A stretch of DNA of 64,000 bases from Phycisphaerae bacterium (GTDB taxonomy: Bacteria; Planctomycetota; Phycisphaerae; Phycisphaerales; SM1A02), in NCBI GenBank assembly GCA_002705085.1, contig PAHO01000008.1:1-64000 (forward strand), written 5' to 3'. The notes under the pieces are model-generated. The model saw nothing but the letters and a program-made list of their open reading frames with translations, made no database searches and was not told where the DNA came from. This document shows, piece after piece, positions 24,511 to 35,316 of this stretch; the first letter of the stretch is position 1, and every line of letters starts with the position of its first letter. The translations under genes were made by a program, and so were the position numbers.

Positions 24511-26037
24511 ATGATCTCGGTTCTGATGCTGTGCGCGCTGTCCTCATTCCAGCAACTGGAATTCGGACCAACCATTCAACCCAGCCAAATATGGACGTCC
24601 AACGGGACCTTTGATGCGGCCGTAACGACAGCCGACGGAAAGCCCATCCAAGAGCATTGGACCAAACAAGGCCTCGACCGATTGAAAGAACCGTTGCCCG
24701 AAGGGCAGGGGCTCGCGCTCTTGTACGAACTTCCAACGGATGGAGTTTTGATGCTGACGTGCAAAGGGCACAACGCAATCTATGGCAACAACGTCACCCA
24801 TCCGCGAGATCCCGGTGCAATTGGTGCGCACCAGTGGCCATTCCCTGTACAGAAAGGCGCAAACTGGATCTTTATCGAGGGAAACAGCAAGCCGCTCCTA
24901 CTCTCGGCACGGCCGGTCGCGGAGACATCCAAAGCCACGGTCAACATTTCGCAGTACGACCGAACCATCCCACAAGCCATCGACCTTATTGAGACCAATG
25001 CCCTCGGCGCAATGGTGGTCAGCAATTTGACCGAAAAAACCATTCGCGAGTGTTCACTTTGGGCACGTTGCCTGTTCAAACCCAATGAAAAATATGTTGG
25101 GCGCCTTTATCCAGAGGACTGGAAGCCAGGAGAGTGGACCCAAGGTTCGACTTGTGATCTTCAACCGTACGCTTCTCAAAAAGTGGAACTTCGTTTGATG
25201 GGCCCCCCGCCGTTTAAAGTCGATCCCCAGCCGTACCCGTTCGAACTGGAATTGCGGACGAAGGACGGGGAAGTGTTGGGCAAATCCTCAGTCAATTTGG
25301 CCGTAAGAGAGCACAAGGATCGCACCTGGGAGACTTTTCGGTCAGAAATTGATGGAAGCATTCAACGCTGGATCAAAATCCCTCGGACCGGGAACCATCA
25401 GGGACCAAATCCAGCAATTTTTGTAGTGCCGCACATACGCCAATCGATCAGCAATCAGGCGCTCTCGTACGAGCCAAGTGAACAGCACGACACTTTTGTG
25501 TGTTGGGGCAGACGCCCAAGCCCGAACGGACACAATGATGAGTTTCGAAGAGAAGCACTGCTAGAGACAATCGAGGCGGCCATTGATCGCCACGGACTTG
25601 ATCGGACTCGGATTGGACTGCTTGGGTTTGGAGAGGCAGGGCTGACCGCTTTTGAACTGCAAAGGCAGAACCCAAGCTTGTTCAGTGGTGTTGCGGCGGT
25701 TTCCACATTCCCACCGATCGACATGACCACAGGCTCAAACATCGTGCTCAATGAACTCCCAGGCCGCCTGTACCTGAGATGGGGGTCTGAGTATGGCGCA
25801 TGCCCTCCAGATGCCAAGGAAAGGTATGAGTACCTGGCCGCTGCAGATCAACTCCGCATTGAGATCGTTGCTGGAGAAGGAGAATGGTGGGGACGAGAGA
25901 CAGTTGATGTCCCTCAAATGCACGAATGGATTCTTGAAGGAAACGGCGATTTCCATTGGCAGAAATCTGAGGGAACAAAACTGCCTGAAAGCCAATCGGA
26001 AGCATGGACTGACTTAGACGCAGCCACTATTGATTGA
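24511..26037 (+). CDS. Secreted alpha/beta-hydrolase-like protein, likely non-catalytic
   Basis: A 508-residue protein with a short possible signal (MISVLMLCALSSF). Residues about 20-280 are beta-rich with no recognised family. From about residue 285 it resembles esterase/PHB-depolymerase-like alpha/beta hydrolases: GPNPAIFVVPHIR, an AAIDRHGLDRTRIGLLGFGEAG elbow, then SLFSGVAAVSTFPP. In the normal elbow G-x-S-x-G the Ser is replaced by Gly (G374) and the last Gly by Ala (A376), so the usual nucleophile is missing. An AGGGGG ribosome site lies 6 nt before the ATG. The gene is upstream of, and in the same direction as, the beta-helix genes, 303 nt from the first one. The fold is a moderate-confidence recognition; the function is unknown. 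Confidence 0.65.
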   Translation: MISVLMLCALSSFQQLEFGPTIQPSQIWTSNGTFDAAVTTADGKPIQEHWTKQGLDRLKEPLPEGQGLALLYELPTDGVLMLTCKGHNAIYGNNVTHPRDPGAIGAHQWPFPVQKGANWIFIEGNSKPLLLSARPVAETSKATVNISQYDRTIPQAIDLIETNALGAMVVSNLTEKTIRECSLWARCLFKPNEKYVGRLYPEDWKPGEWTQGSTCDLQPYASQKVELRLMGPPPFKVDPQPYPFELELRTKDGEVLGKSSVNLAVREHKDRTWETFRSEIDGSIQRWIKIPRTGNHQGPNPAIFVVPHIRQSISNQALSYEPSEQHDTFVCWGRRPSPNGHNDEFRREALLETIEAAIDRHGLDRTRIGLLGFGEAGLTAFELQRQNPSLFSGVAAVSTFPPIDMTTGSNIVLNELPGRLYLRWGSEYGACPPDAKERYEYLAAADQLRIEIVAGEGEWWGRETVDVPQMHEWILEGNGDFHWQKSEGTKLPESQSEAWTDLDAATID

Positions 26038-26340: not shown

Positions 26341-27882
26341 ATGCAAAATAAAATCTTTGCGCTAACCACTCTCGTCGCGAGCACTGTGACACTCGGGCAA
26401 GAGCTTCCAAACCCAAACCCGGCCCCACAAGCTGACGGCACTCAAATCTGGTACGTCGGTAACAACACCCAGTATCCAGTCATTCAAGACGTCCTTGCAG
26501 CATGCTCTGACGGTGATGAAATCGTCGTCAACGGTGAAACTGGAACTGACAGTGCTCTTTACGTCGAAAGCCTCGTCATCGACAACAAAGACATGCTGAC
26601 TCTTCGCCCACGAGTGCGACACGTATCTGTCACTGGTGGCGCTGGATTCATGGAATTCGATAACGTTGTATTCTTGAACCCTACTCAGGGATTCAACAAT
26701 GACAACAAATATGCAATTCACATCTCAGGATCCCGAGGCTCTTACATTGGGAACCCACGTTCTGTCAATGAGTTGCTGAATGGCCAAGAAGCTGTGGTTG
26801 TCCTCGATGACCAGGCGGCTTTCTCCGAGCCTGCTGCTCCAGGCGCCACCACGAGAATCGCCCAAGGCTCTGATGTCGCTTTCACGTTCCGAGCACGTTC
26901 CTTTGACGATGTCAGCATTCTTCTGGATGGCTCGTCTTGCACTGTCTCTGACTGTGCGCTGGAGCCACGACAAGGTGTTGGCGGCGGATTGATGTCGTAC
27001 AACGGTGACAACTCCACTGTGGTCGAATGCACAATTGTTGGATTTACCAGCACTGGCAACACCCACGACATCAGTGGACTTCCTGTGTGCGCTGTGTCCA
27101 TGAAGGACTCTTCCACCACGATGGCTTCTTGCACCATTACCGGCAACTTCGGCGCGAACTCGGGCATTGTGAATCTTGATGGTGGAGCGCCTAGGTTTGA
27201 GAAAACCTTAATTGCGAGCAACAACGCTCAGGCCTCACTTGGCACAGTCATGGGCTCGGGTGGCTCTGCAGAGTTCATGAGCTGCTCATTTGGCAAACAG
27301 ACAGACCCCGCCGTCGCCGGCGGCGGCACCGGCAACGTTTCAAACCTTGGCACCATCTACTGGGACGCTTCTGCATCCACAGGAATGTATGCGTTTACAC
27401 ATTGCGACTTTGACCGCAATACGACTGCGGAAGCCTCCCAAGGATGGGGCGAAATCGCTTACGTGTCTGACTCGACGGCAACTGGATCGGATCTTGATCC
27501 AAAGATTTCTTTCAGCGCTTGCGAGTACGTCACCGACGTGACCGATGATGGCCCATACGGCACCATGGATGGTTCAAATGGTGTTCCTGAAGAATCCGCC
27601 ATCTACACCCCCTATCTCCCTGAGTATCGCTTGCACTCCGATTGGGGTGACAGCACCGACTGGGGCGTGGGTGGCGGGCCTGCATCAGGCTTAAGTGTGG
27701 TTGACAATAGTGGAAGCGGCATCCCAGGTGATGTTGACGGCAATGACGCAGTCAACTTTGCGGACCTCGATGTTCTCATGTCACTGCTGGGAACTTGTCA
27801 ATATGACCCTACCCGCGACGGCGAAGTCGGATTCGCCGATGTGCTCTCCATCTTGAACAGCTGGGGCGAAATCTGCGAGTGA
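26341..27882 (+). CDS. Secreted beta-helix protein with dockerin-like C-terminus, copy 1
   Basis: A 513-residue exported protein. After the signal peptide (MQNKIFALTTLVASTVTLG) comes a conserved block, PNPAPQADGTQIWYVGNN then TQYPVIQDVLAACSDGDEIVV, which is the usual first turn of a right-handed parallel beta-helix (pectate-lyase-like) domain. The body has repeated short strands with Gly/Asn/Thr/Ser turns and several Cys. The C-terminus has two EF-hand-like dockerin loops (GDVDGNDAVNFADLDVL and DPTRDGEVGFADVLSIL) and ends WGEICE. No catalytic residues of a polysaccharide lyase are evident, so surface binding, scaffolding or adhesion is as likely as enzyme activity. Start supported by TTAGGAG 10 nt upstream. 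It is the most divergent of three paralogs (with 30751 and 32483). Confidence 0.8.
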   Translation: MQNKIFALTTLVASTVTLGQELPNPNPAPQADGTQIWYVGNNTQYPVIQDVLAACSDGDEIVVNGETGTDSALYVESLVIDNKDMLTLRPRVRHVSVTGGAGFMEFDNVVFLNPTQGFNNDNKYAIHISGSRGSYIGNPRSVNELLNGQEAVVVLDDQAAFSEPAAPGATTRIAQGSDVAFTFRARSFDDVSILLDGSSCTVSDCALEPRQGVGGGLMSYNGDNSTVVECTIVGFTSTGNTHDISGLPVCAVSMKDSSTTMASCTITGNFGANSGIVNLDGGAPRFEKTLIASNNAQASLGTVMGSGGSAEFMSCSFGKQTDPAVAGGGTGNVSNLGTIYWDASASTGMYAFTHCDFDRNTTAEASQGWGEIAYVSDSTATGSDLDPKISFSACEYVTDVTDDGPYGTMDGSNGVPEESAIYTPYLPEYRLHSDWGDSTDWGVGGGPASGLSVVDNSGSGIPGDVDGNDAVNFADLDVLMSLLGTCQYDPTRDGEVGFADVLSILNSWGEICE

Positions 27883-27890
27883 TGATCACT

Positions 27891-27947
27891 CACATTTACA
27901 CATAAATGTGGAATTGAAGTTGGCCCCGAAAAGGGGCCAACTTTTTT
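27891..27947 (+). terminator. Double hairpin terminator
   Basis: First hairpin: CACATTTA (27891-27898), CACA loop, TAAATGTG (27903-27910). Second: AAGTTGGCCCC (27917-27927), GAAAA loop, GGGGCCAACTT (27933-27943), followed by U6 (27942-27947). The second is a textbook Rho-independent terminator for copy 1 of the beta-helix genes. Confidence 0.93.
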
Positions 27948-27981
27948 CGCTGTGTACTTTGTTTTGAAGGATGATGTATCC

Positions 27982-30543
27982 ATGATTTTGATCTCCCTCA
28001 TTGCTATTGCCTCCACAGAACGCCCGTGGTTTGCGCTTGTAGACGACAGCAGTGGCCAAGGAAGTATCACCTCATCGATACCAAAGATCATGCGAGTCAA
28101 TGGGCCATTTTTTGATGAGCACGTCCTGTACACGGAACCAGCGTTGCCGCCTCTTTCTGCCTGCAACAACGAAATCAGAGCCGCGGTTTCCGTGGAAGCG
28201 TTGCAGTCGTATTTTCCGCTGTATGGCCAGAACCAATCTGTCTTTGTCCTTGACACGGGCTCGGCCGACGCGGCACACCCGGGATTTTCTGGAAGAGTGA
28301 TCAACCTTGAGGGTGGATTTGACGACGGACATGCCACACATGTCACTGGGACCATACTTTCGTCTTTTGATGTTGCAAAAGGTACTGCCCCTGCACTTTC
28401 GGCAGTGGTGAAACCATTTTTTGCAGACAGTCAGGGGGATGTCTTTTACACGAATCCGGGGCAGATCGAAACCGCGTTTACGGAAGCTGCTTCACGTGAC
28501 ATTTCGATTTTGAATGCCTCTATTGGTGTGAACGTCAATGTGAATGGCTACAGCTGCGATCTCCTCGGGCAATACGGTCTGGCGTCTTATGTGGTTGATC
28601 AGGCGGTTCGAGGGGCCTATGGGATCCCGGTTCTATCAATTTGGTCCGCTGGAAATGAACGAAGCTTTGACGCCTGCGGCGACTACGGAACAATCGCGCC
28701 TCCGGCGACCAACAGAAATGCCCTAACCGTTGGTGCAACATATTCCGACCTTGGCACCGTCACACTCTTCAGTTCATACGGTCCGACCAATGATGGAAGA
28801 ATCAAACCCGACCTGGTTGCCCCTGGCGCTCAGCTTTCACAAGACTTAGGGATTTCGAGCCTAGAGCCAGGAAATACGATTGGAGTGCGGAGTGGAACAT
28901 CCATGTCTGCACCGTGTGTCACGGGGACGGCAGCGCTGCTTCAAGAAGCATGGCTCATGTCGCCAGCCACCACGGATAGACCAACTCCAGAATGTTTACG
29001 AGCCATCCTTTGCGGTACGACAACCGATATCAGCACCCAAGGACCAGATTTCCGCAGTGGTTTTGGTCAACTCAATGCCTCATCTGCACTCGATGCTGTG
29101 ATGTTCGGAAATGCCTTGGATGAATCGCTTCAATTCGGGTCAACCACTGCTCGGCAAATTGTCTCCGATGGCTCACCCTTCCGCTGCACCATCGCTTGGT
29201 CAGATGCCCCTGCAGATGGCTCCGACAGCGTGATTCGACGGAACCTTGATTTAAAGTTGATCAGTCCATCCGGAACCATCCACTACCCGTGGCAACTTGA
29301 TCCAAACAATCCATCATGGCCGGCAACACGATCTGAAGGGACAGATATCCTCAACACAATTGAGCAGGTTTCAGTAGACCAGCCCGAGCCTGGGACCTGG
29401 TTTATGGTCATCACAGGAGACGGAGAAGGCCCGGGCATTCAAATTCCTGTCGGGGTGTGCGTGGATGGGGCCCACTTCACCGGCACCAGAATCGGCGTTC
29501 TGAGTGAACCATCACCTTCCCTGTTGGGCTCTGCTGAGATCGATGTCCAGATTTGGGCACTCAACGAAGGCGTCCCCGTCACTTCGTCGCTCGAGGCAGC
29601 TCGGGTCCTACACGGTGAACAAATACAATTGGAAGTTCACCAAATTCGCCCAGGTCAGTTCTCCACCAAAGCACCAGTTCCTCCATGTGACCAGACGGCC
29701 TCACTTTCGGTGAAGTTGTATGACAATCAACAACTTCTGGCCCAGTTCCCCACAGATGGCGAAAGAACCTTCACTGCCGGAGGTTCTACCATTTTAACTC
29801 GAATCGATGACACCCTGGCAAAGTACCAGAACTGGTCCGTAATTTATTCGGCTGGCGCAGGAGCTTGGCGGGCAGCCCGTTTGCTGGCCAGTCCGAACTG
29901 CTCATTTCTTGGAATACCCAACCAGGGGCCCGATGGATCAAGCAATGACGTGCTGATCACCGGCTACGACACTGGGCTTCCGTACTGTGGGAGCGGTCTC
30001 GAGGATAGTTACACCTCAGCAGAATCGACCCCATTCCCCGTTGGAACAAATACTTTGATCTTTGACTATTGGTTTTCACCAGGAATTGGAGTGCCCGCTC
30101 ATTCTGACGATGATCTCATCATTCAGGCGACATGGGACGAAGGGATCCATTGGCATGAGATTCACCGGTTTGTTGGAACCGAGGAGCACAATCCTGGACT
30201 CACAGCGTGGCGTGAAGTTGAGATTGATCTGAGCGAGTCCCCCGCTTTTGACATCTCTCAAGCACCACGCTTCAGATTTTTTGTTGAAGAAGCTGGATTC
30301 CCAAGCCTCGTGGTGGCCGCAGTGGCCAATATCCAAGGGATAAGCCGACAGTGCGATCCCGCAACGTCCATCTGCGATGGAGACGCCAATGGAGACAACC
30401 AAGTCGATTTTGAAGATGTACTGTCCGTTCTGCTTCTTTGGGCCGACAGCTGCCAAGGATGTCCAGAAGACGTCGACCACAACGGCACGATTGGATTCAA
30501 TGACCTCTTGATGGTGCTTCTGGAATGGGATAGCGAGTGCTGA
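27982..30543 (+). CDS. Secreted subtilisin-like (S8) protease with dockerin-like C-terminus
   Basis: An 853-residue serine protease. A short signal (MILISLIAIAST) is followed by a propeptide-like stretch and the S8 domain with the full triad: D91 in VFVLDTG, H117 in GHATHVTGT and S307 in SGTSMSAPCVTG, with oxyanion-type Asn in WSAGNE. A jelly-roll/P-domain-like region follows (RRNLDLKLISPSG, EQVSVDQPEPGTWFMVITG), then a beta-sandwich part, and at the end two EF-hand-like loops (DANGDNQVDFEDVLSVL, DVDHNGTIGFNDLLMVL) ending DSEC. ATG at 27982 is chosen because GAAGGA lies about 10 nt upstream; a GTG at 27952 is the alternative. It sits between paralogous beta-helix genes that share its tail type, so it may process or turn over these surface proteins (inference). 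Confidence 0.92.
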   Translation: MILISLIAIASTERPWFALVDDSSGQGSITSSIPKIMRVNGPFFDEHVLYTEPALPPLSACNNEIRAAVSVEALQSYFPLYGQNQSVFVLDTGSADAAHPGFSGRVINLEGGFDDGHATHVTGTILSSFDVAKGTAPALSAVVKPFFADSQGDVFYTNPGQIETAFTEAASRDISILNASIGVNVNVNGYSCDLLGQYGLASYVVDQAVRGAYGIPVLSIWSAGNERSFDACGDYGTIAPPATNRNALTVGATYSDLGTVTLFSSYGPTNDGRIKPDLVAPGAQLSQDLGISSLEPGNTIGVRSGTSMSAPCVTGTAALLQEAWLMSPATTDRPTPECLRAILCGTTTDISTQGPDFRSGFGQLNASSALDAVMFGNALDESLQFGSTTARQIVSDGSPFRCTIAWSDAPADGSDSVIRRNLDLKLISPSGTIHYPWQLDPNNPSWPATRSEGTDILNTIEQVSVDQPEPGTWFMVITGDGEGPGIQIPVGVCVDGAHFTGTRIGVLSEPSPSLLGSAEIDVQIWALNEGVPVTSSLEAARVLHGEQIQLEVHQIRPGQFSTKAPVPPCDQTASLSVKLYDNQQLLAQFPTDGERTFTAGGSTILTRIDDTLAKYQNWSVIYSAGAGAWRAARLLASPNCSFLGIPNQGPDGSSNDVLITGYDTGLPYCGSGLEDSYTSAESTPFPVGTNTLIFDYWFSPGIGVPAHSDDDLIIQATWDEGIHWHEIHRFVGTEEHNPGLTAWREVEIDLSESPAFDISQAPRFRFFVEEAGFPSLVVAAVANIQGISRQCDPATSICDGDANGDNQVDFEDVLSVLLLWADSCQGCPEDVDHNGTIGFNDLLMVLLEWDSEC

Positions 30544-30651
30544 AGCGGCCCGTAGTCTGAATTTGAGGCAATCTCGGGCAATCTGCAGTGGCTCTAAAAA
30601 AATTTGCGAATTTGCAGTTGCCAATCCCTAAATGTCTGATAAAAAAGGGCT

Positions 30652-30687
30652 TATAACCTACGGGCAGTCAGGGGGGGAACCACTGAC
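30652..30687 (+). promoter_or_regulatory. -10-like box and G-rich leader hairpin, copy A
   Basis: TATAAC at 30652-30657 is followed 9 nt later by GTCAG (30667-30671), an 11-nt loop GGGGGGAACCA, and CTGAC (30683-30687). Another G6 run follows at 30694-30699. The same stem and loop geometry occurs before the next beta-helix gene (32403-32423). It starts 84 nt before the ATG at 30751. Function unknown. Confidence 0.5.
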
Positions 30688-30750
30688 ATCAATGGGGGGA
30701 TGGTCTCACCAAAGGCCCAAGGTGGATGTTTGCGCCTGGAGATTGATCTC

Positions 30751-32247
30751 ATGCGTTTTGCACTTTCTATTGTTTCGACCCTCGCGGTCGGCTCTGTGGC
30801 CTTGGCACAAGAGTTTCCTGATCCCAATCCCGTTCCTCAAGCAGACGGGACATTCCTCTGGTACGTGGGCAACAACACCCAGTACCCCGTTATTCAAGAC
30901 GTGCTTGAAGCCGTCTCTGACGGCGATGAAGTCGTGGTCCGCGAGGGCCTCTATGTCGAGTCACTTCACATTGACAACAACGAAGTGACAATCCGTCCAT
31001 TTGTCTACAGAGCCCCCATGGACGGACCGGCAAGTTTTGAATCGGTCACCTTTTTGAATCCCACTGAAGGATTCAACAACAACAACGGGTGGGCCATGAA
31101 GATGGAAGGCGGACGTGGAACTTACGTCGGTCGTCCACGTCAATTCACCGAGCTGTCAAATGGCCTTGATGTGGAAACTCGCATTCAGCCTCGAGATACT
31201 TTTAGCTACGCCGCTGCCGGTGGCCTCGTCGAGGTCCCTCAAATTAACAAAGGGATTTACCAAACTGGTGCCTCAGGCACTGCGCCAGGAGTGATCCGAT
31301 TCCAATCACGTACGGTCGATGATGTTGCCATCCTTTCTGATTCTGGACTTGGAACGTTCCATGGAGCTTTGATCACCTCGATGCAAGGCTCTGGCGGCGG
31401 CATCATGGTCAGTGGCAGTGACAACCAAACTGCCTTTGTCGACTGTATGGTCATGAAGTTGTATGCCACCGGCAACGCTCACGATCAAGCTGGAGATCTT
31501 CCAGTATGCGTGATCGGCATCCATGGCGATTCAACAACTCGTCCGACTTTCCATAAGGTCACTGTGGAAAACAACGATTCTGCACAATACGGAACCGTGT
31601 ATCAAAACGGAGCTGACTCCACATGGTCGTTCTGCGACATTCACCACAACGACTCTCGTGCTGCTGATGGAGCCATCATGGCCAAGGATGGTCGATCCAC
31701 GTGGACCGACTGCCGAATCAGGGATAACAAGTCGGGCCGTGGCACCTTTTACTCGGAAGCCGATGGATCACTGGCGACCGACGAGCATCGATTCTTGAAC
31801 TCATGCTTCATTGATAATGAAACAGTGACAAGTTTGTACGGTGGCGTTGCCTGGGTTGATCATGCCGGTGCAGCTGGTGGTCAACCACAAATCATGTTCT
31901 CCGGATGCGCTTTCCAGAACAACAACGGACTCGACTTCCCGAATCCAACAACACCTTACGACTCCAATCTGGAGACAGAAGCTGACTACGCCATTCATAC
32001 TCCGTACTTCCCTGAGTATCGAATCGGGCTGGACAACTCCAACACCTGTGAGTCCTACGCGACACTGGTTCTTGATCCCCCTGCACCGATGGGCGATATG
32101 AACTCGGATGGAAGCGTCGATCAGATTGATCTTGATCAGATGTTGGAATTGCTTGGCACCTGCCGATCCGACGTCAACACTTCTGGAGACATCGAATTCG
32201 GTGACATCATCGAAGTCCTCTCCAACTTTGGCAGCAACTGCGACTGA
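30751..32247 (+). CDS. Secreted beta-helix protein with dockerin-like C-terminus, copy 2
   Basis: A 498-residue paralog of the protein at 26341 and a close relative of the one at 32483. Signal peptide MRFALSIVSTLAVGSVALA is followed by PDPNPVPQADGTFLWYVGNN and a first beta-helix turn, TQYPVIQDVLEAVSDGDEVV. Blocks shared with copy 3 include WAMKMEGGRGTYVGRPRQF, NGLDVETR, FHGALITSMQGSGGGIMVSG and YFPEYRIGLDNSN. The tail has two EF-hand-like loops (GDMNSDGSVDQIDLDQML, DVNTSGDIEFGDIIEVL) with Cys before and after, ending NCD. ATG at 30751 has GGAG 9 nt upstream. Likely exported or surface-attached; no enzymatic residues recognised. Confidence 0.82.
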   Translation: MRFALSIVSTLAVGSVALAQEFPDPNPVPQADGTFLWYVGNNTQYPVIQDVLEAVSDGDEVVVREGLYVESLHIDNNEVTIRPFVYRAPMDGPASFESVTFLNPTEGFNNNNGWAMKMEGGRGTYVGRPRQFTELSNGLDVETRIQPRDTFSYAAAGGLVEVPQINKGIYQTGASGTAPGVIRFQSRTVDDVAILSDSGLGTFHGALITSMQGSGGGIMVSGSDNQTAFVDCMVMKLYATGNAHDQAGDLPVCVIGIHGDSTTRPTFHKVTVENNDSAQYGTVYQNGADSTWSFCDIHHNDSRAADGAIMAKDGRSTWTDCRIRDNKSGRGTFYSEADGSLATDEHRFLNSCFIDNETVTSLYGGVAWVDHAGAAGGQPQIMFSGCAFQNNNGLDFPNPTTPYDSNLETEADYAIHTPYFPEYRIGLDNSNTCESYATLVLDPPAPMGDMNSDGSVDQIDLDQMLELLGTCRSDVNTSGDIEFGDIIEVLSNFGSNCD

Positions 32248-32274
32248 TCCAAGTCACAGAACCCTGCCCACAAG

Positions 32275-32303
32275 CCCCAGGGAGCGATCCCTGGGGTTTT
32301 TTT
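32275..32303 (+). terminator. Rho-independent terminator
   Basis: CCCCAGGGA (32275-32283), GCGA loop, TCCCTGGGG (32288-32296), then U7 (32297-32303). A 9-bp perfect stem ending beta-helix copy 2. Confidence 0.94.
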
Positions 32304-32375
32304 ACCAAAGTGCTACAAAACTTATGTTCCAATAAAAGCCGCTGGTTTAGACTACTAATGTGTAAGTTATTGGAA

Positions 32376-32423
32376 TATAATGACTTGCATCGTGCAACGG
32401 ATGTCAGGGGGGGATCCGCTGAC
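32376..32423 (+). promoter_or_regulatory. -10 box and G-rich leader hairpin, copy B
   Basis: A perfect TATAAT at 32376-32381 precedes GTCAG (32403-32407), an 11-nt loop GGGGGGATCCG, and CTGAC (32419-32423). The sequence continues with more G runs (GGGAGGGGTGGT, 32428-32439). The hairpin begins 80 nt before the ATG at 32483. Stem and loop length equal those of copy A; two loop positions differ. Confidence 0.55.
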
Positions 32424-32482
32424 GCATGGGAGGGGTGGTCCCGACCTACTGAAGCACGGGTTCGTTCCACGGAGTAAACCTC

Positions 32483-33970
32483 ATGCGTAATCACATTTCT
32501 CTGTTCGCGGCATCAGCCGTGACTGCAGTCGCACTCGGGCAAGAATTTCCCGATCCCAATCCCGTTCCTCAAGCAGACGGAACATTCCTCTGGTACGTGG
32601 GCAACAACACCCAGTACCCCGTCATCCAAGACGTACTTGAAGCTGTCGCAGACGGCGATGAAGTTGTGGTCCGTCAGGGCCTCTACGTCGAATCACTTCA
32701 CATCGACAACAATGAAGTAACCATCCGCCCGTTTGTGACCAGTTCAGACGAAGAGGCATCGTTTGAAGCCGTTACCTTTTTGAACCCAACTGAAGGATTC
32801 AATAACAACAACGGGTGGGCAATGAAAATGGAAGGCGGCCGTGGCACCTATGTGGGCCGTCCACGACAGTTCACCGAACTTTCCAATGGCCTGGATGTGG
32901 AAACCCGTGTTCAGCCTCGGGACACCTTTGACTACTCTGCTATTGGTGGATTGGTAGAAGTCCCATCAATTCAAAAATCCACTTACTCGACAGGTAGTGG
33001 TGGCTCTGCCGACGGTGTTATTCGATTCCAATCCCGTACGCTAGATGACGTCGCAATTCTTTCAGAGTCCGGCCTTGGAACCTTCCACGGTGCTTTGATC
33101 ACTTCCATGCAAGGATCCGGTGGCGGGATCATGGTCTCCGGAGTTGACAACCAGACTGCCTTTGTTGATTGTTCGCTGACCACGCTTTATGCAACCGGCA
33201 ATGCACACGATCAAGCCGGTGGCTTGCCGGTATGCGTTGTAGGGATCATTGGTGACTCGACGACGCGTCCGACCTTCCATGATGTTCGCATCTACGGAAA
33301 CGACTCTGCCCAATACGGCATCGTTTACCAAGAGAATGCCGACTCGACTTGGTCTTTCTGCGAAGTCACAGAGAATGACTCACGCGCTGCTGACGGCACC
33401 ATCCACGCTGCTGGGGGTAGAGGAACATTCACGGACTGCCTCATCGCAGATAACGAGTCGGGCCGCGGCACATTCTATTGGGATGCAGAAGGCTCCCTTG
33501 CCACCGATGAATTCCGCTTCCTGAACTCTTGCTTCATCAAGAATTACACCATCACCAACCTCTACGGAGGTGTTGGCTGGGTAGATCATCCATCTGCCGC
33601 AGGCGGACAGCCAAAGGTCATGTTCTCTGGGTGTGGATTCGTGGGCAATAATGACCTTGATTTCCCAAATCCCACCGATCCTGATGATTCCATGCTGGAA
33701 ACCGAAGCCGACTATGCGATTGATACTCCTTACTTCCCTGAGTATCGCATTGGCCTTGACAACTCGAATATCTGTGGCGACCTGACCCCAGTTGTCGAAA
33801 TCGTTGAGTCATCGGGCGACTTGAACAATGATGGAGAGATCAACGATTCCGATCTCGAAACATTGCTTGCCTTGCTCGGCACTTGTCGCACTGACGTCAA
33901 CAGTTCGGGCGACATTGAGTTCGGCGACATAATCGAAGTCCTTTCCAACTTCGGAAACGTCTGCGAGTAA
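32483..33970 (+). CDS. Secreted beta-helix protein with dockerin-like C-terminus, copy 3
   Basis: A 495-residue paralog, nearly colinear with copy 2. The signal peptide is MRNHISLFAASAVTAVALG; the conserved block PDPNPVPQADGTFLWYVGNN follows. The beta-helix body has Gly/Asn/Asp-rich turns, and the tail has two EF-hand-like loops (GDLNNDGEINDSDLETLL, DVNSSGDIEFGDIIEVL), ending VCE. Start supported by ACGGAG about 9 nt upstream of the ATG. Differences from copy 2 cluster in surface-turn regions (for example residues around SSDEEASFEA), consistent with diversification of exposed loops. It has its own promoter and terminator, so the copies can be expressed separately. Function likely surface or matrix binding; not shown. 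Confidence 0.82.
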   Translation: MRNHISLFAASAVTAVALGQEFPDPNPVPQADGTFLWYVGNNTQYPVIQDVLEAVADGDEVVVRQGLYVESLHIDNNEVTIRPFVTSSDEEASFEAVTFLNPTEGFNNNNGWAMKMEGGRGTYVGRPRQFTELSNGLDVETRVQPRDTFDYSAIGGLVEVPSIQKSTYSTGSGGSADGVIRFQSRTLDDVAILSESGLGTFHGALITSMQGSGGGIMVSGVDNQTAFVDCSLTTLYATGNAHDQAGGLPVCVVGIIGDSTTRPTFHDVRIYGNDSAQYGIVYQENADSTWSFCEVTENDSRAADGTIHAAGGRGTFTDCLIADNESGRGTFYWDAEGSLATDEFRFLNSCFIKNYTITNLYGGVGWVDHPSAAGGQPKVMFSGCGFVGNNDLDFPNPTDPDDSMLETEADYAIDTPYFPEYRIGLDNSNICGDLTPVVEIVESSGDLNNDGEINDSDLETLLALLGTCRTDVNSSGDIEFGDIIEVLSNFGNVCE

Positions 33971-33977
33971 TTAAAAT

Positions 33978-34046
33978 AAACATCTAAAGGATGTTTTTAA
34001 ACCAATAGAGGGGTCTCGGGCTGCAATCCGAGACCCCTCTAATTTT
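33978..34046 (+). terminator. Tandem terminator hairpins
   Basis: A weak hairpin AAACATC/GATGTTT (33978-33996) with a short U-run is followed by a strong one: AGAGGGGTCTCGG (34007-34019) pairing with CCGAGACCCCTCT (34028-34040), 13 bp with an 8-nt loop, then AAUUUU. It ends beta-helix copy 3. The stem lies between convergent genes and could also slow transcription from the lipoprotein side, although that side has no U-run. Confidence 0.88.
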
Positions 34047-34074
34047 GGCACAACTGAAATGTTGAGATCATTCT

Positions 34075-35298
34075 CTACTGTTCAGATTTCTTTGGCACGG
34101 GAATGGACATACCGGTTGTCTTGGCCAGCCAAAGTTGGCTTGATGGCCTTCCCTCCTGGTTTCTGTCCTGTCCTCGTTGAGCAGTCCACATCATCATGGA
34201 ACCATCAGGATTGAAGACAGGCAGCCCGTCAAATCCATTGGCATTTGTGATCCGGGTTGGCTCCTTCCTGACCGACATATCTCCAGTGACCGGCAGGGCA
34301 AAGACTTCATAGTTGCGGTGCGACACGCGACTTGTGGCGTAGACCAACCATTCCCCAGATGGATGAAAGAATGGCGCCCAGTTCACATGCCGATCCGCGG
34401 TGAGCGCATATTCGGCTTCAATGCCTGAGGGCACGCCATCTTCGATCTTCAATTTAGAAACTTGGATTTGCAGCAGGTTGTTGCCTTCTCGATCGGAGCG
34501 GTAGCAGATGAATTGGCCGTCTGGGGAAAAGAAAGGCCCCCCGTCGTAGCCTGGTGCGGCAACGATCTTTGTCTTCTTACCCGAGGCCATGTCATGCACG
34601 TACAAATCGGCGTCTTGGGTCTCCGGCAGGACTCGGGCGTACAGAATGGTCTTCCCGTCTGGGCTCCATGATCCTTCCGCGCAGTATCCAGGCATGTCGA
34701 CAACTGGCTCGAGGTTAAGAACACCAGCTTTTCCGACCATCTGCGGCACCACAGTTTGAACGATCGTCATCTCTTCTGGAAAGGCCCAGCGGTACTTGGA
34801 CTGTTCACGCTGGTAGCCAGGCACGTTGGTGCCGCTTGGAGGCACCAACGTGCAACCAAAAAGAATCCGACCTGGATCATGAGGATGGAACCAGCCACAG
34901 GTGTTTGCACTTCCCGGAGGAGACAGCAAGATGGGCTCTTCCAAGCCCGTCACCGCTCCATCTTGCTCCTGCAACTTCGCGACATACATGGCGTAGTGCT
35001 CATCGGGCGCCTGTCCTTCGGAGGGCTTTGCCACTGCCTGAAAGATGATCCAGTCGCCGTCTGGCGAAAAGTAGGCCTCCCCCGCCTTGTGGAACGACTC
35101 GGCGAAGGTCAACTGCACGTAATCAGTGAGGAAAGGCTCATCCCAATCGGAGACAACTGGCCCCACGGGGCCGGCATCGGGAATGACACAGGCACAAGAG
35201 ACGATGGCCGTCGGCAGCGCACCGGCGGAATAGTCACTGCTCTTGGGTAGGGCACATCCAGCCACCAGAAGCCCGATCAAACAAGAATGACAACGCAT
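34075..35298 (-). CDS. TolB-like beta-propeller lipoprotein
   Basis: A 407-residue lipoprotein with a PD40/WD40-like propeller. The N-terminus MRCHSCLIGLLVAGC carries a lipobox ending at C15. The propeller repeats are plain: FSPDGDWIIFQ, WSPDGKTILYAR, FSPDGQFICYRSDREGNN, FHPSGEWLVYATSR and FNPDGSMMMWTAQRG. Such proteins serve as periplasmic or outer-membrane protein-interaction platforms, or sit next to peptidases; here no Pal or Tol genes are near. ATG at 35298 gives the best signal peptide; an in-frame TTG three codons upstream is part of the promoter. There is no Shine-Dalgarno sequence, but TACAAT ends 8 nt before the ATG. Divergent from the merC-like gene, with only 26 nt between the start codons. 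Confidence 0.87.
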   Translation of the reverse strand: MRCHSCLIGLLVAGCALPKSSDYSAGALPTAIVSCACVIPDAGPVGPVVSDWDEPFLTDYVQLTFAESFHKAGEAYFSPDGDWIIFQAVAKPSEGQAPDEHYAMYVAKLQEQDGAVTGLEEPILLSPPGSANTCGWFHPHDPGRILFGCTLVPPSGTNVPGYQREQSKYRWAFPEEMTIVQTVVPQMVGKAGVLNLEPVVDMPGYCAEGSWSPDGKTILYARVLPETQDADLYVHDMASGKKTKIVAAPGYDGGPFFSPDGQFICYRSDREGNNLLQIQVSKLKIEDGVPSGIEAEYALTADRHVNWAPFFHPSGEWLVYATSRVSHRNYEVFALPVTGDMSVRKEPTRITNANGFDGLPVFNPDGSMMMWTAQRGQDRNQEGRPSSQLWLAKTTGMSIPVPKKSEQ

Positions 35299-35306
35299 AG
35301 TGGGCA

Positions 35307-35316
35307 ATTGTAGGAT
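35307..35316. promoter_or_regulatory. Overlapping divergent -10 boxes
   Basis: ATTGTAGGAT holds TACAAT on the minus strand (35307-35312) and TAGGAT on the plus strand (35311-35316), sharing the central TA. Each lies exactly 8 nt from its start codon (35298 minus, 35325 plus). For the plus direction ATGACA at 35287-35292 gives a -35 with an 18-nt spacer. AGGA inside the plus box could alternatively act as a weak ribosome site. Confidence 0.45.

What the first reader, a model, noticed from the sequence alone, without database searches (positions are those of the whole stretch)
26341..33970. Secreted module: three beta-helix paralogs around a subtilisin-like protease, all with the same tail type
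The three beta-helix proteins share an N-terminal block (YVGNNTQYPVIQDVL) and two EF-hand-like loops at the end; the protease between copies 1 and 2 has the same loop type. Copies 1-3 each end in a strong terminator, so each can be tuned separately. This looks like a surface adhesion or matrix system with a built-in processing protease, and I do not recognise it as a described system.
Basis: partly seen in the sequence, partly recalled or inferred. Interest (0 to 1): 0.62.

Follow-up and report, generated by a model that had tools for sequence, protein, structure and literature searches.

The report
Tandem secreted beta-helix gene array
In marine planctomycete bacteria, a small gene cluster makes several copies of a secreted rod-like protein together with a protein-cutting enzyme and an esterase look-alike that in most species has lost its active site; the cluster recurs in related species, but its tail type is ordinary for these bacteria and its job is unproven.

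Summary
In detail: three paralogous beta-helix genes (B1, B2, B3) surround an S8 protease. All four proteins end in a two-loop dockerin-like tail, and the three beta-helix genes each end in a strong hairpin.

The tail marks nothing special, because about 73 loci in this 2 Mb genome carry it. The N-terminal block is the family's N-cap.

The protease link is real. Array-linked proteases form one clade (100/100) and sit beside the array in the window genome, four genomes of another genus (G037, G065, G086, G101) and MAG Nau_6. The protease is missing from a complete five-copy array in a sister species (G001), so it is an optional partner.

It heads every array whose head is assembled, and its close homologues occur only in array genomes. 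Its catalytic Ser and His are lost in six of seven members and kept in Nau_6, so it looks like a pseudo-esterase.

The beta-helix fold is confirmed by prediction. No carboxylate in the coil body is invariant, which argues against one shared lyase or hydrolase site. The best reading is a non-catalytic secreted scaffold or adhesin array with turnover protease; function is unproven.

The parts
24511..26037 (+). Est: secreted protein with a beta-rich N-terminal part plus an alpha/beta-hydrolase-like domain whose catalytic Ser is Gly (GFGEAG) and catalytic His is Glu (GEWWGRE); a pseudo-esterase that heads the array
   Evidence: Close homologues (E<1e-35) only in array genomes and at the array head; fold and nucleophile position
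26341..27882 (+). B1: divergent right-handed beta-helix paralog with signal peptide and two-loop dockerin-like tail
   Evidence: long branch in the family tree
27727..27879 (+). Dockerin-like tail of B1
   Evidence: Profile A3, E 7e-22
27916..27948 (+). Intrinsic terminator after B1
   Evidence: Fold -27.7 kcal/mol, z -6.8, then a T run
27982..30543 (+). S8 subtilase of KP-43/SubHal type with full D-H-N-S catalytic set, C-terminal jelly-roll-like region and dockerin-like tail; propeptide region shorter than in relatives; ATG at 27982 (a GTG at 27952 is possible)
   Evidence: Pfam PF00082 1e-33; 1wmd E 1e-35; triad; alignment; clade
30379..30540 (+). Dockerin-like tail of the protease
   Evidence: Profile A3, E 1e-19
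30667..30710 (+). Leader element of B2: GTCAGGGGGGG(N)CTGAC inverted repeat followed by a G-rich stretch
   Evidence: Pattern found only upstream of array genes in the 4 genus genomes
30751..32247 (+). B2: right-handed beta-helix paralog with signal peptide and two-loop tail (tail 32092-32244)
32272..32306 (+). Intrinsic terminator after B2
   Evidence: Fold -22.8 kcal/mol, z -3.7, then 7 T
32403..32446 (+). Leader element of B3, same inverted repeat plus TGGGAGGGGTGGTCCCGACC
32483..33970 (+). B3: right-handed beta-helix paralog (modelled by AlphaFold2), two-loop tail 33815-33967
34002..34048 (+). Hairpin terminator after B3, probably shared with the converging gene at 34075-35307
   Evidence: Fold -32.0 kcal/mol, z -6.1; scanner finds it on the - strand

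Best explanation
This is a birth-and-death array of secreted, non-catalytic right-handed beta-helix proteins that are exported by signal peptide and held at the cell surface or in an extracellular complex by a calcium-binding dockerin-like tail. They act as a scaffold or adhesin (binding polysaccharide or particle surface). The array is headed by a pseudo-esterase that probably binds, and no longer cleaves, an ester-decorated glycan. A tail-bearing KP-43-type subtilase is an optional partner that trims or turns over the surface proteins. Shown: gene content, linkage, clade structure, fold prediction, loss of the esterase Ser and His, tail type. Inferred: surface location, calcium binding, scaffold or adhesive role, substrate of the protease.
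For: Conserved neighbourhood Est - BH(n) - S8 in four genomes of another genus (the one in G101 split over two contigs) and in MAG Nau_6, with Est - B1 - S8 - B2 - B3 in the window. Est is found only in array genomes. Array-linked S8 form one clade, 100/100. Lineage-specific tandem copies in the tree. Beta-helix fold with top VIA-align Z about 25. In the coil body (about residues 86-430) the invariant or near-invariant charged residues are few (R128, R185, R422; E104 and D188 nearly) and no carboxylate is invariant, so no shared acid/base pair is evident. Est Ser is replaced by Gly or Ala and His by Glu or Arg in six of seven members, and both are kept in Nau_6. The subtilase of the window has an intact D-H-N-S set. 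In Nau_6 the last beta-helix stop overlaps the protease start (ATGA), which implies co-expression there.
Against: Right-handed beta-helix structures are mostly carbohydrate-active, and the nearest folds here are lyases, epimerases and tailspikes; single paralogs could still be enzymes. No Pfam cohesin was detected in the window genome, so the anchoring partner of the tails is unknown. G001 has the array without the protease. In the other array-linked proteases the catalytic Asp aligns with Glu, so their activity is uncertain. No expression, localisation or binding data.
Confidence: 0.45

Rival explanations
1. The beta-helix proteins are carbohydrate-active enzymes (lyase, hydrolase or epimerase of an undescribed family), and the locus is a secreted glycan-degradation cluster in which the protease frees glycan from glycoprotein and an ancestral esterase removed ester groups.
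For: Best structural neighbours are polysaccharide lyases, epimerases, glycosidases and depolymerase tailspikes. Nau_6 keeps the esterase Ser and His. Hosts are marine Phycisphaerales MAGs.
Against: No invariant carboxylate pair or known lyase motif in the coil body. Pfam sees only a sub-threshold Beta_helix match and no lyase family. The esterase has lost its active site in six of seven loci. No transporters or glycosidases were recognised among the neighbouring genes mapped.
Confidence: 0.25
2. The protease is a general nutrient-scavenging enzyme that lies next to the array by shared inheritance; there is no functional link to the beta-helix proteins.
For: Related KP-43-type subtilases occur in about 45 of 201 relatives without the array, other tail-bearing genes crowd the same neighbourhoods, and the protease is missing from G001.
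Against: Array-linked proteases form a single clade distinct from the unlinked ones (100/100) and keep their place beside the array in three lineages, with coupled translation in Nau_6.
Confidence: 0.25
3. A canonical cellulosome-like or 'planctosome' complex in which the tails dock onto cohesins.
For: Tail has two calcium-loop repeats and resembles type I dockerin (sub-threshold Pfam; profile behaviour). A peptidase-bearing cohesin/dockerin complex was proposed for freshwater planctomycetes (PMC6461901).
Against: No Pfam cohesin in the window genome, G001 or G003, though six of 61 family genomes do pass the cut-off.
Confidence: 0.15

Closest known systems
KP-43 / SubHal type subtilases (PDB 1wmd, 5fax)
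   Same: S8 catalytic domain with Asp, His, Asn and Ser in the window protein, followed by the KP-43-type jelly-roll region (1wmd E 1e-35)
   Different: Adds a further C-terminal region and a dockerin-like tail; propeptide shortened relative to array-linked relatives, in which the catalytic Asp aligns with Glu
Right-handed parallel beta-helix proteins (Pfam Beta_helix PF13229 and pectin-lyase-like folds)
   Same: Predicted fold and N-terminal cap
   Different: Below the Pfam cut-off, no invariant carboxylate in the coil body, tandem paralog array with two-loop tails
Noncellulosomal dockerins and the hypothetical 'planctosome' (PMC6461901)
   Same: Dockerin-like tails on secreted peptidases and other proteins in planctomycetes
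   Different: Marine Phycisphaerales, no detected cohesin in this genome, beta-helix array and pseudo-esterase not part of that model
Alpha/beta-hydrolase esterases (LC-Est1C 3wyd, Thermotoga esterase 3doh, dienelactone hydrolase 3f67)
   Same: Fold and active-site positions
   Different: Ser and His lost in six of seven array members

Membership tests
Peptidase S8 (subtilase), KP-43 type | Catalytic Asp, His, Ser and oxyanion Asn in the S8 fold | tested here: met
   Window protein has VLDTG, GHATHV, SAGNE, SGTSMSAP aligned to 1wmd; Pfam 1e-33
Peptidase S8 (subtilase), KP-43 type | C-terminal jelly-roll region as in 1wmd | tested here: met
   phmmer alignment runs through to 1wmd residue 416
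Right-handed parallel beta-helix | Stacked three-strand coils forming a right-handed helix | tested here: met
   AlphaFold2 model of B3, pTM 0.78; Z about 25 to known beta-helices; Pfam score just under the cut-off
Pectate/polysaccharide lyase families | Conserved catalytic residues on one face of the helix | tested here: inconclusive
   No invariant carboxylate in the coil body over 33 sequences; no lyase Pfam/NCBIfam hit; activity not testable
Type I dockerin | Two calcium-loop/helix repeats | tested here: met
   Two D-x-N-x-D-G-type repeats in the alignment
Type I dockerin | Pfam Dockerin_1 score over the gathering cut-off | tested here: not met
   12.6 and 13.8 bits against a cut-off of 22.9
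Cellulosome/planctosome | Cohesin-bearing scaffold in the same genome | tested here: not met
   No PF00963 match in G000, a 90% complete assembly
Serine esterase (alpha/beta-hydrolase) | Ser-Asp-His triad | tested here: not met
   Window: Ser is Gly, His is Glu

The most novel reading that the evidence does not exclude
An undescribed extracellular system of marine Phycisphaerales in which tandemly duplicating beta-helix proteins are displayed together with a pseudo-esterase, with a dedicated subtilase clade that matures or remodels the displayed layer, so that copy number and copy identity set what the cell sticks to.
Probability: 0.25. Interest if true: 0.6.

Novelty: new variant of a known kind. 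Interest (0 to 1): 0.4.

Why it matters
Planctomycetes carry large numbers of dockerin-like tailed secreted proteins of unknown purpose. This locus picks out a small, conserved, testable set: one scaffold family, one pseudo-enzyme and one protease with traceable gain, loss and active-site decay across related marine genomes. If the link is functional, it would give a first defined case of what such tails assemble in this lineage.

Tried and rejected
(1) Shared tail as module mark: rejected, 96 matches in about 73 places genome-wide. (2) Obligate protease: rejected by the complete array in G001 without it. (3) Known RNA element in the leaders: no Rfam match in the window other than a tRNA, and single-sequence folds of the B2 and B3 leaders are no better than shuffles. 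(4) Cohesin partner: not found in this genome. (5) Receiver-HTH regulator as a core member: it lies next to Est in five arrays, but relatives of it occur in 180 of 201 genomes, one 52% identical in G112, where no array was detected, so it may be only a neighbour. (6) Strong positive selection among copies: pN is well below pS for all pairs, with pS near saturation. (7) Papers: no description of the cluster found.

Full report
What is there. The window lies in a 1.98 Mb, 90% complete genome whose relatives are marine Phycisphaerales MAGs. The four genes of the finding are real: B1, the S8 protease, B2 and B3, all on the + strand. B2 and B3 are 77% identical and B1 is about 40% identical to them. 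Each beta-helix protein starts with a signal-peptide-like stretch (judged by eye; no predictor was available) followed by a P-x-P-N-P-type segment and the block YVGNNTQYPVIQ, which is nearly invariant across 33 relatives. RNA folding supports the three hairpins after B1, B2 and B3.

The tail. A profile of the tails finds 96 matches, about 73 separate loci, in this genome. The tail is therefore the ordinary secretory tail of this lineage. It has two EF-hand-like loops, scores below the Dockerin_1 cut-off, and no cohesin was found in the genome. A cohesin/dockerin peptidase complex has been proposed for freshwater planctomycetes (PMC6461901).

The beta-helix family. Full-length relatives occur as tandem arrays in the window's genus (G001-G003), a second genus (G037, G065, G086, G101), MAG Nau_6 and, with a one-loop tail, in G051, G053 and G106. 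The tree shows lineage-specific duplications; B1 is on a long branch. AlphaFold2 gives a right-handed beta-helix (pLDDT 80.5, pTM 0.78) that aligns to lyases, epimerases, glycosidases and tailspikes at Z 20-25, which fixes the fold and not the function. In the coil body the conserved charged positions are few, and no carboxylate is invariant.

The protease. It matches KP-43 (1wmd) at 1e-35 with a complete D-H-N-S set. Proteases beside arrays form one clade with 100/100 support, separate from unlinked relatives. They lie at the downstream end of the array in G037, G065, G086, G101 and Nau_6, and between B1 and B2 in the window. In Nau_6 the start overlaps the preceding stop. G001 has five copies, contiguous between Est and the PD40 gene, and no such protease. 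Arrays of G002 and G003 are broken by contig ends, so absence there is not firm. In the five array-linked proteases other than the window's, the catalytic Asp aligns with Glu; their activity is open.

The missed partner. The gene at 24511-26037 has homologues with E below 1e-35 only in six of 201 genomes searched, all array genomes, each at the head of the array; Nau_6 has one as well. An uncorrected Fisher test gives p about 3e-10 for Est and 2e-8 for the array-clade protease against the 8 genomes with the two-loop family; relatedness of the genomes makes these overstated, and adjacency is the stronger evidence. The model is modest (pLDDT 67.6, pTM 0.49), but its hydrolase domain aligns to esterases at Z about 15-17. 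Alignment with LC-Est1C and a dienelactone hydrolase places the nucleophile and His. Nau_6 keeps both (GFSDAG, GHWWG); the second genus has Ala and Arg, the window and G001 have Gly and Glu. Est also evolves much faster than flanking genes (dN 0.48 between the window and G001, against 0.01-0.09 for three flanking genes compared with sister species), as expected after loss of catalysis.

Leader element. B2 and B3 share an upstream inverted repeat GTCAGGGGGG(N)CTGAC and a following G-rich stretch. Across the four genomes of the genus the repeat occurs five times, each time in front of an array gene. Single-sequence folding does not support a stable RNA structure, so a DNA operator is as likely as an RNA element.

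Conclusion. The surface-scaffold reading with protease turnover is the most likely, at 0.45. An enzyme reading and a no-link reading remain open.

Noticed in passing
window 30667-30710 and 32403-32446: Conserved leader element with inverted repeat GTCAG...CTGAC and a run of 6-7 G, found only upstream of array genes in four genomes of the genus; run length varies between copies.
   Followed up: partly
L064:2919-3563, L066:8897-9532, L067:15517-16170, L065:4049-4678, L084:1993-2586: Receiver plus HTH_17 regulator directly upstream of the pseudo-esterase in five arrays, not seen in the window's neighbourhood; family widespread in the order.
   Followed up: partly
L042-L045 and L084 proteases: Catalytic Asp of the S8 triad aligns with Glu in all array-linked proteases except the window's, with His, Asn and Ser kept.
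   Followed up: partly
window 27982-28170: Protease N-terminal and propeptide region is shortened compared with array-linked relatives and its signal peptide is short.
   Followed up: no
G051:C78 and G053:C58: Arrays of the one-loop-tail group hold broken or fused copies with in-frame stops between fragments, which suggests ongoing copy turnover.
   Followed up: no
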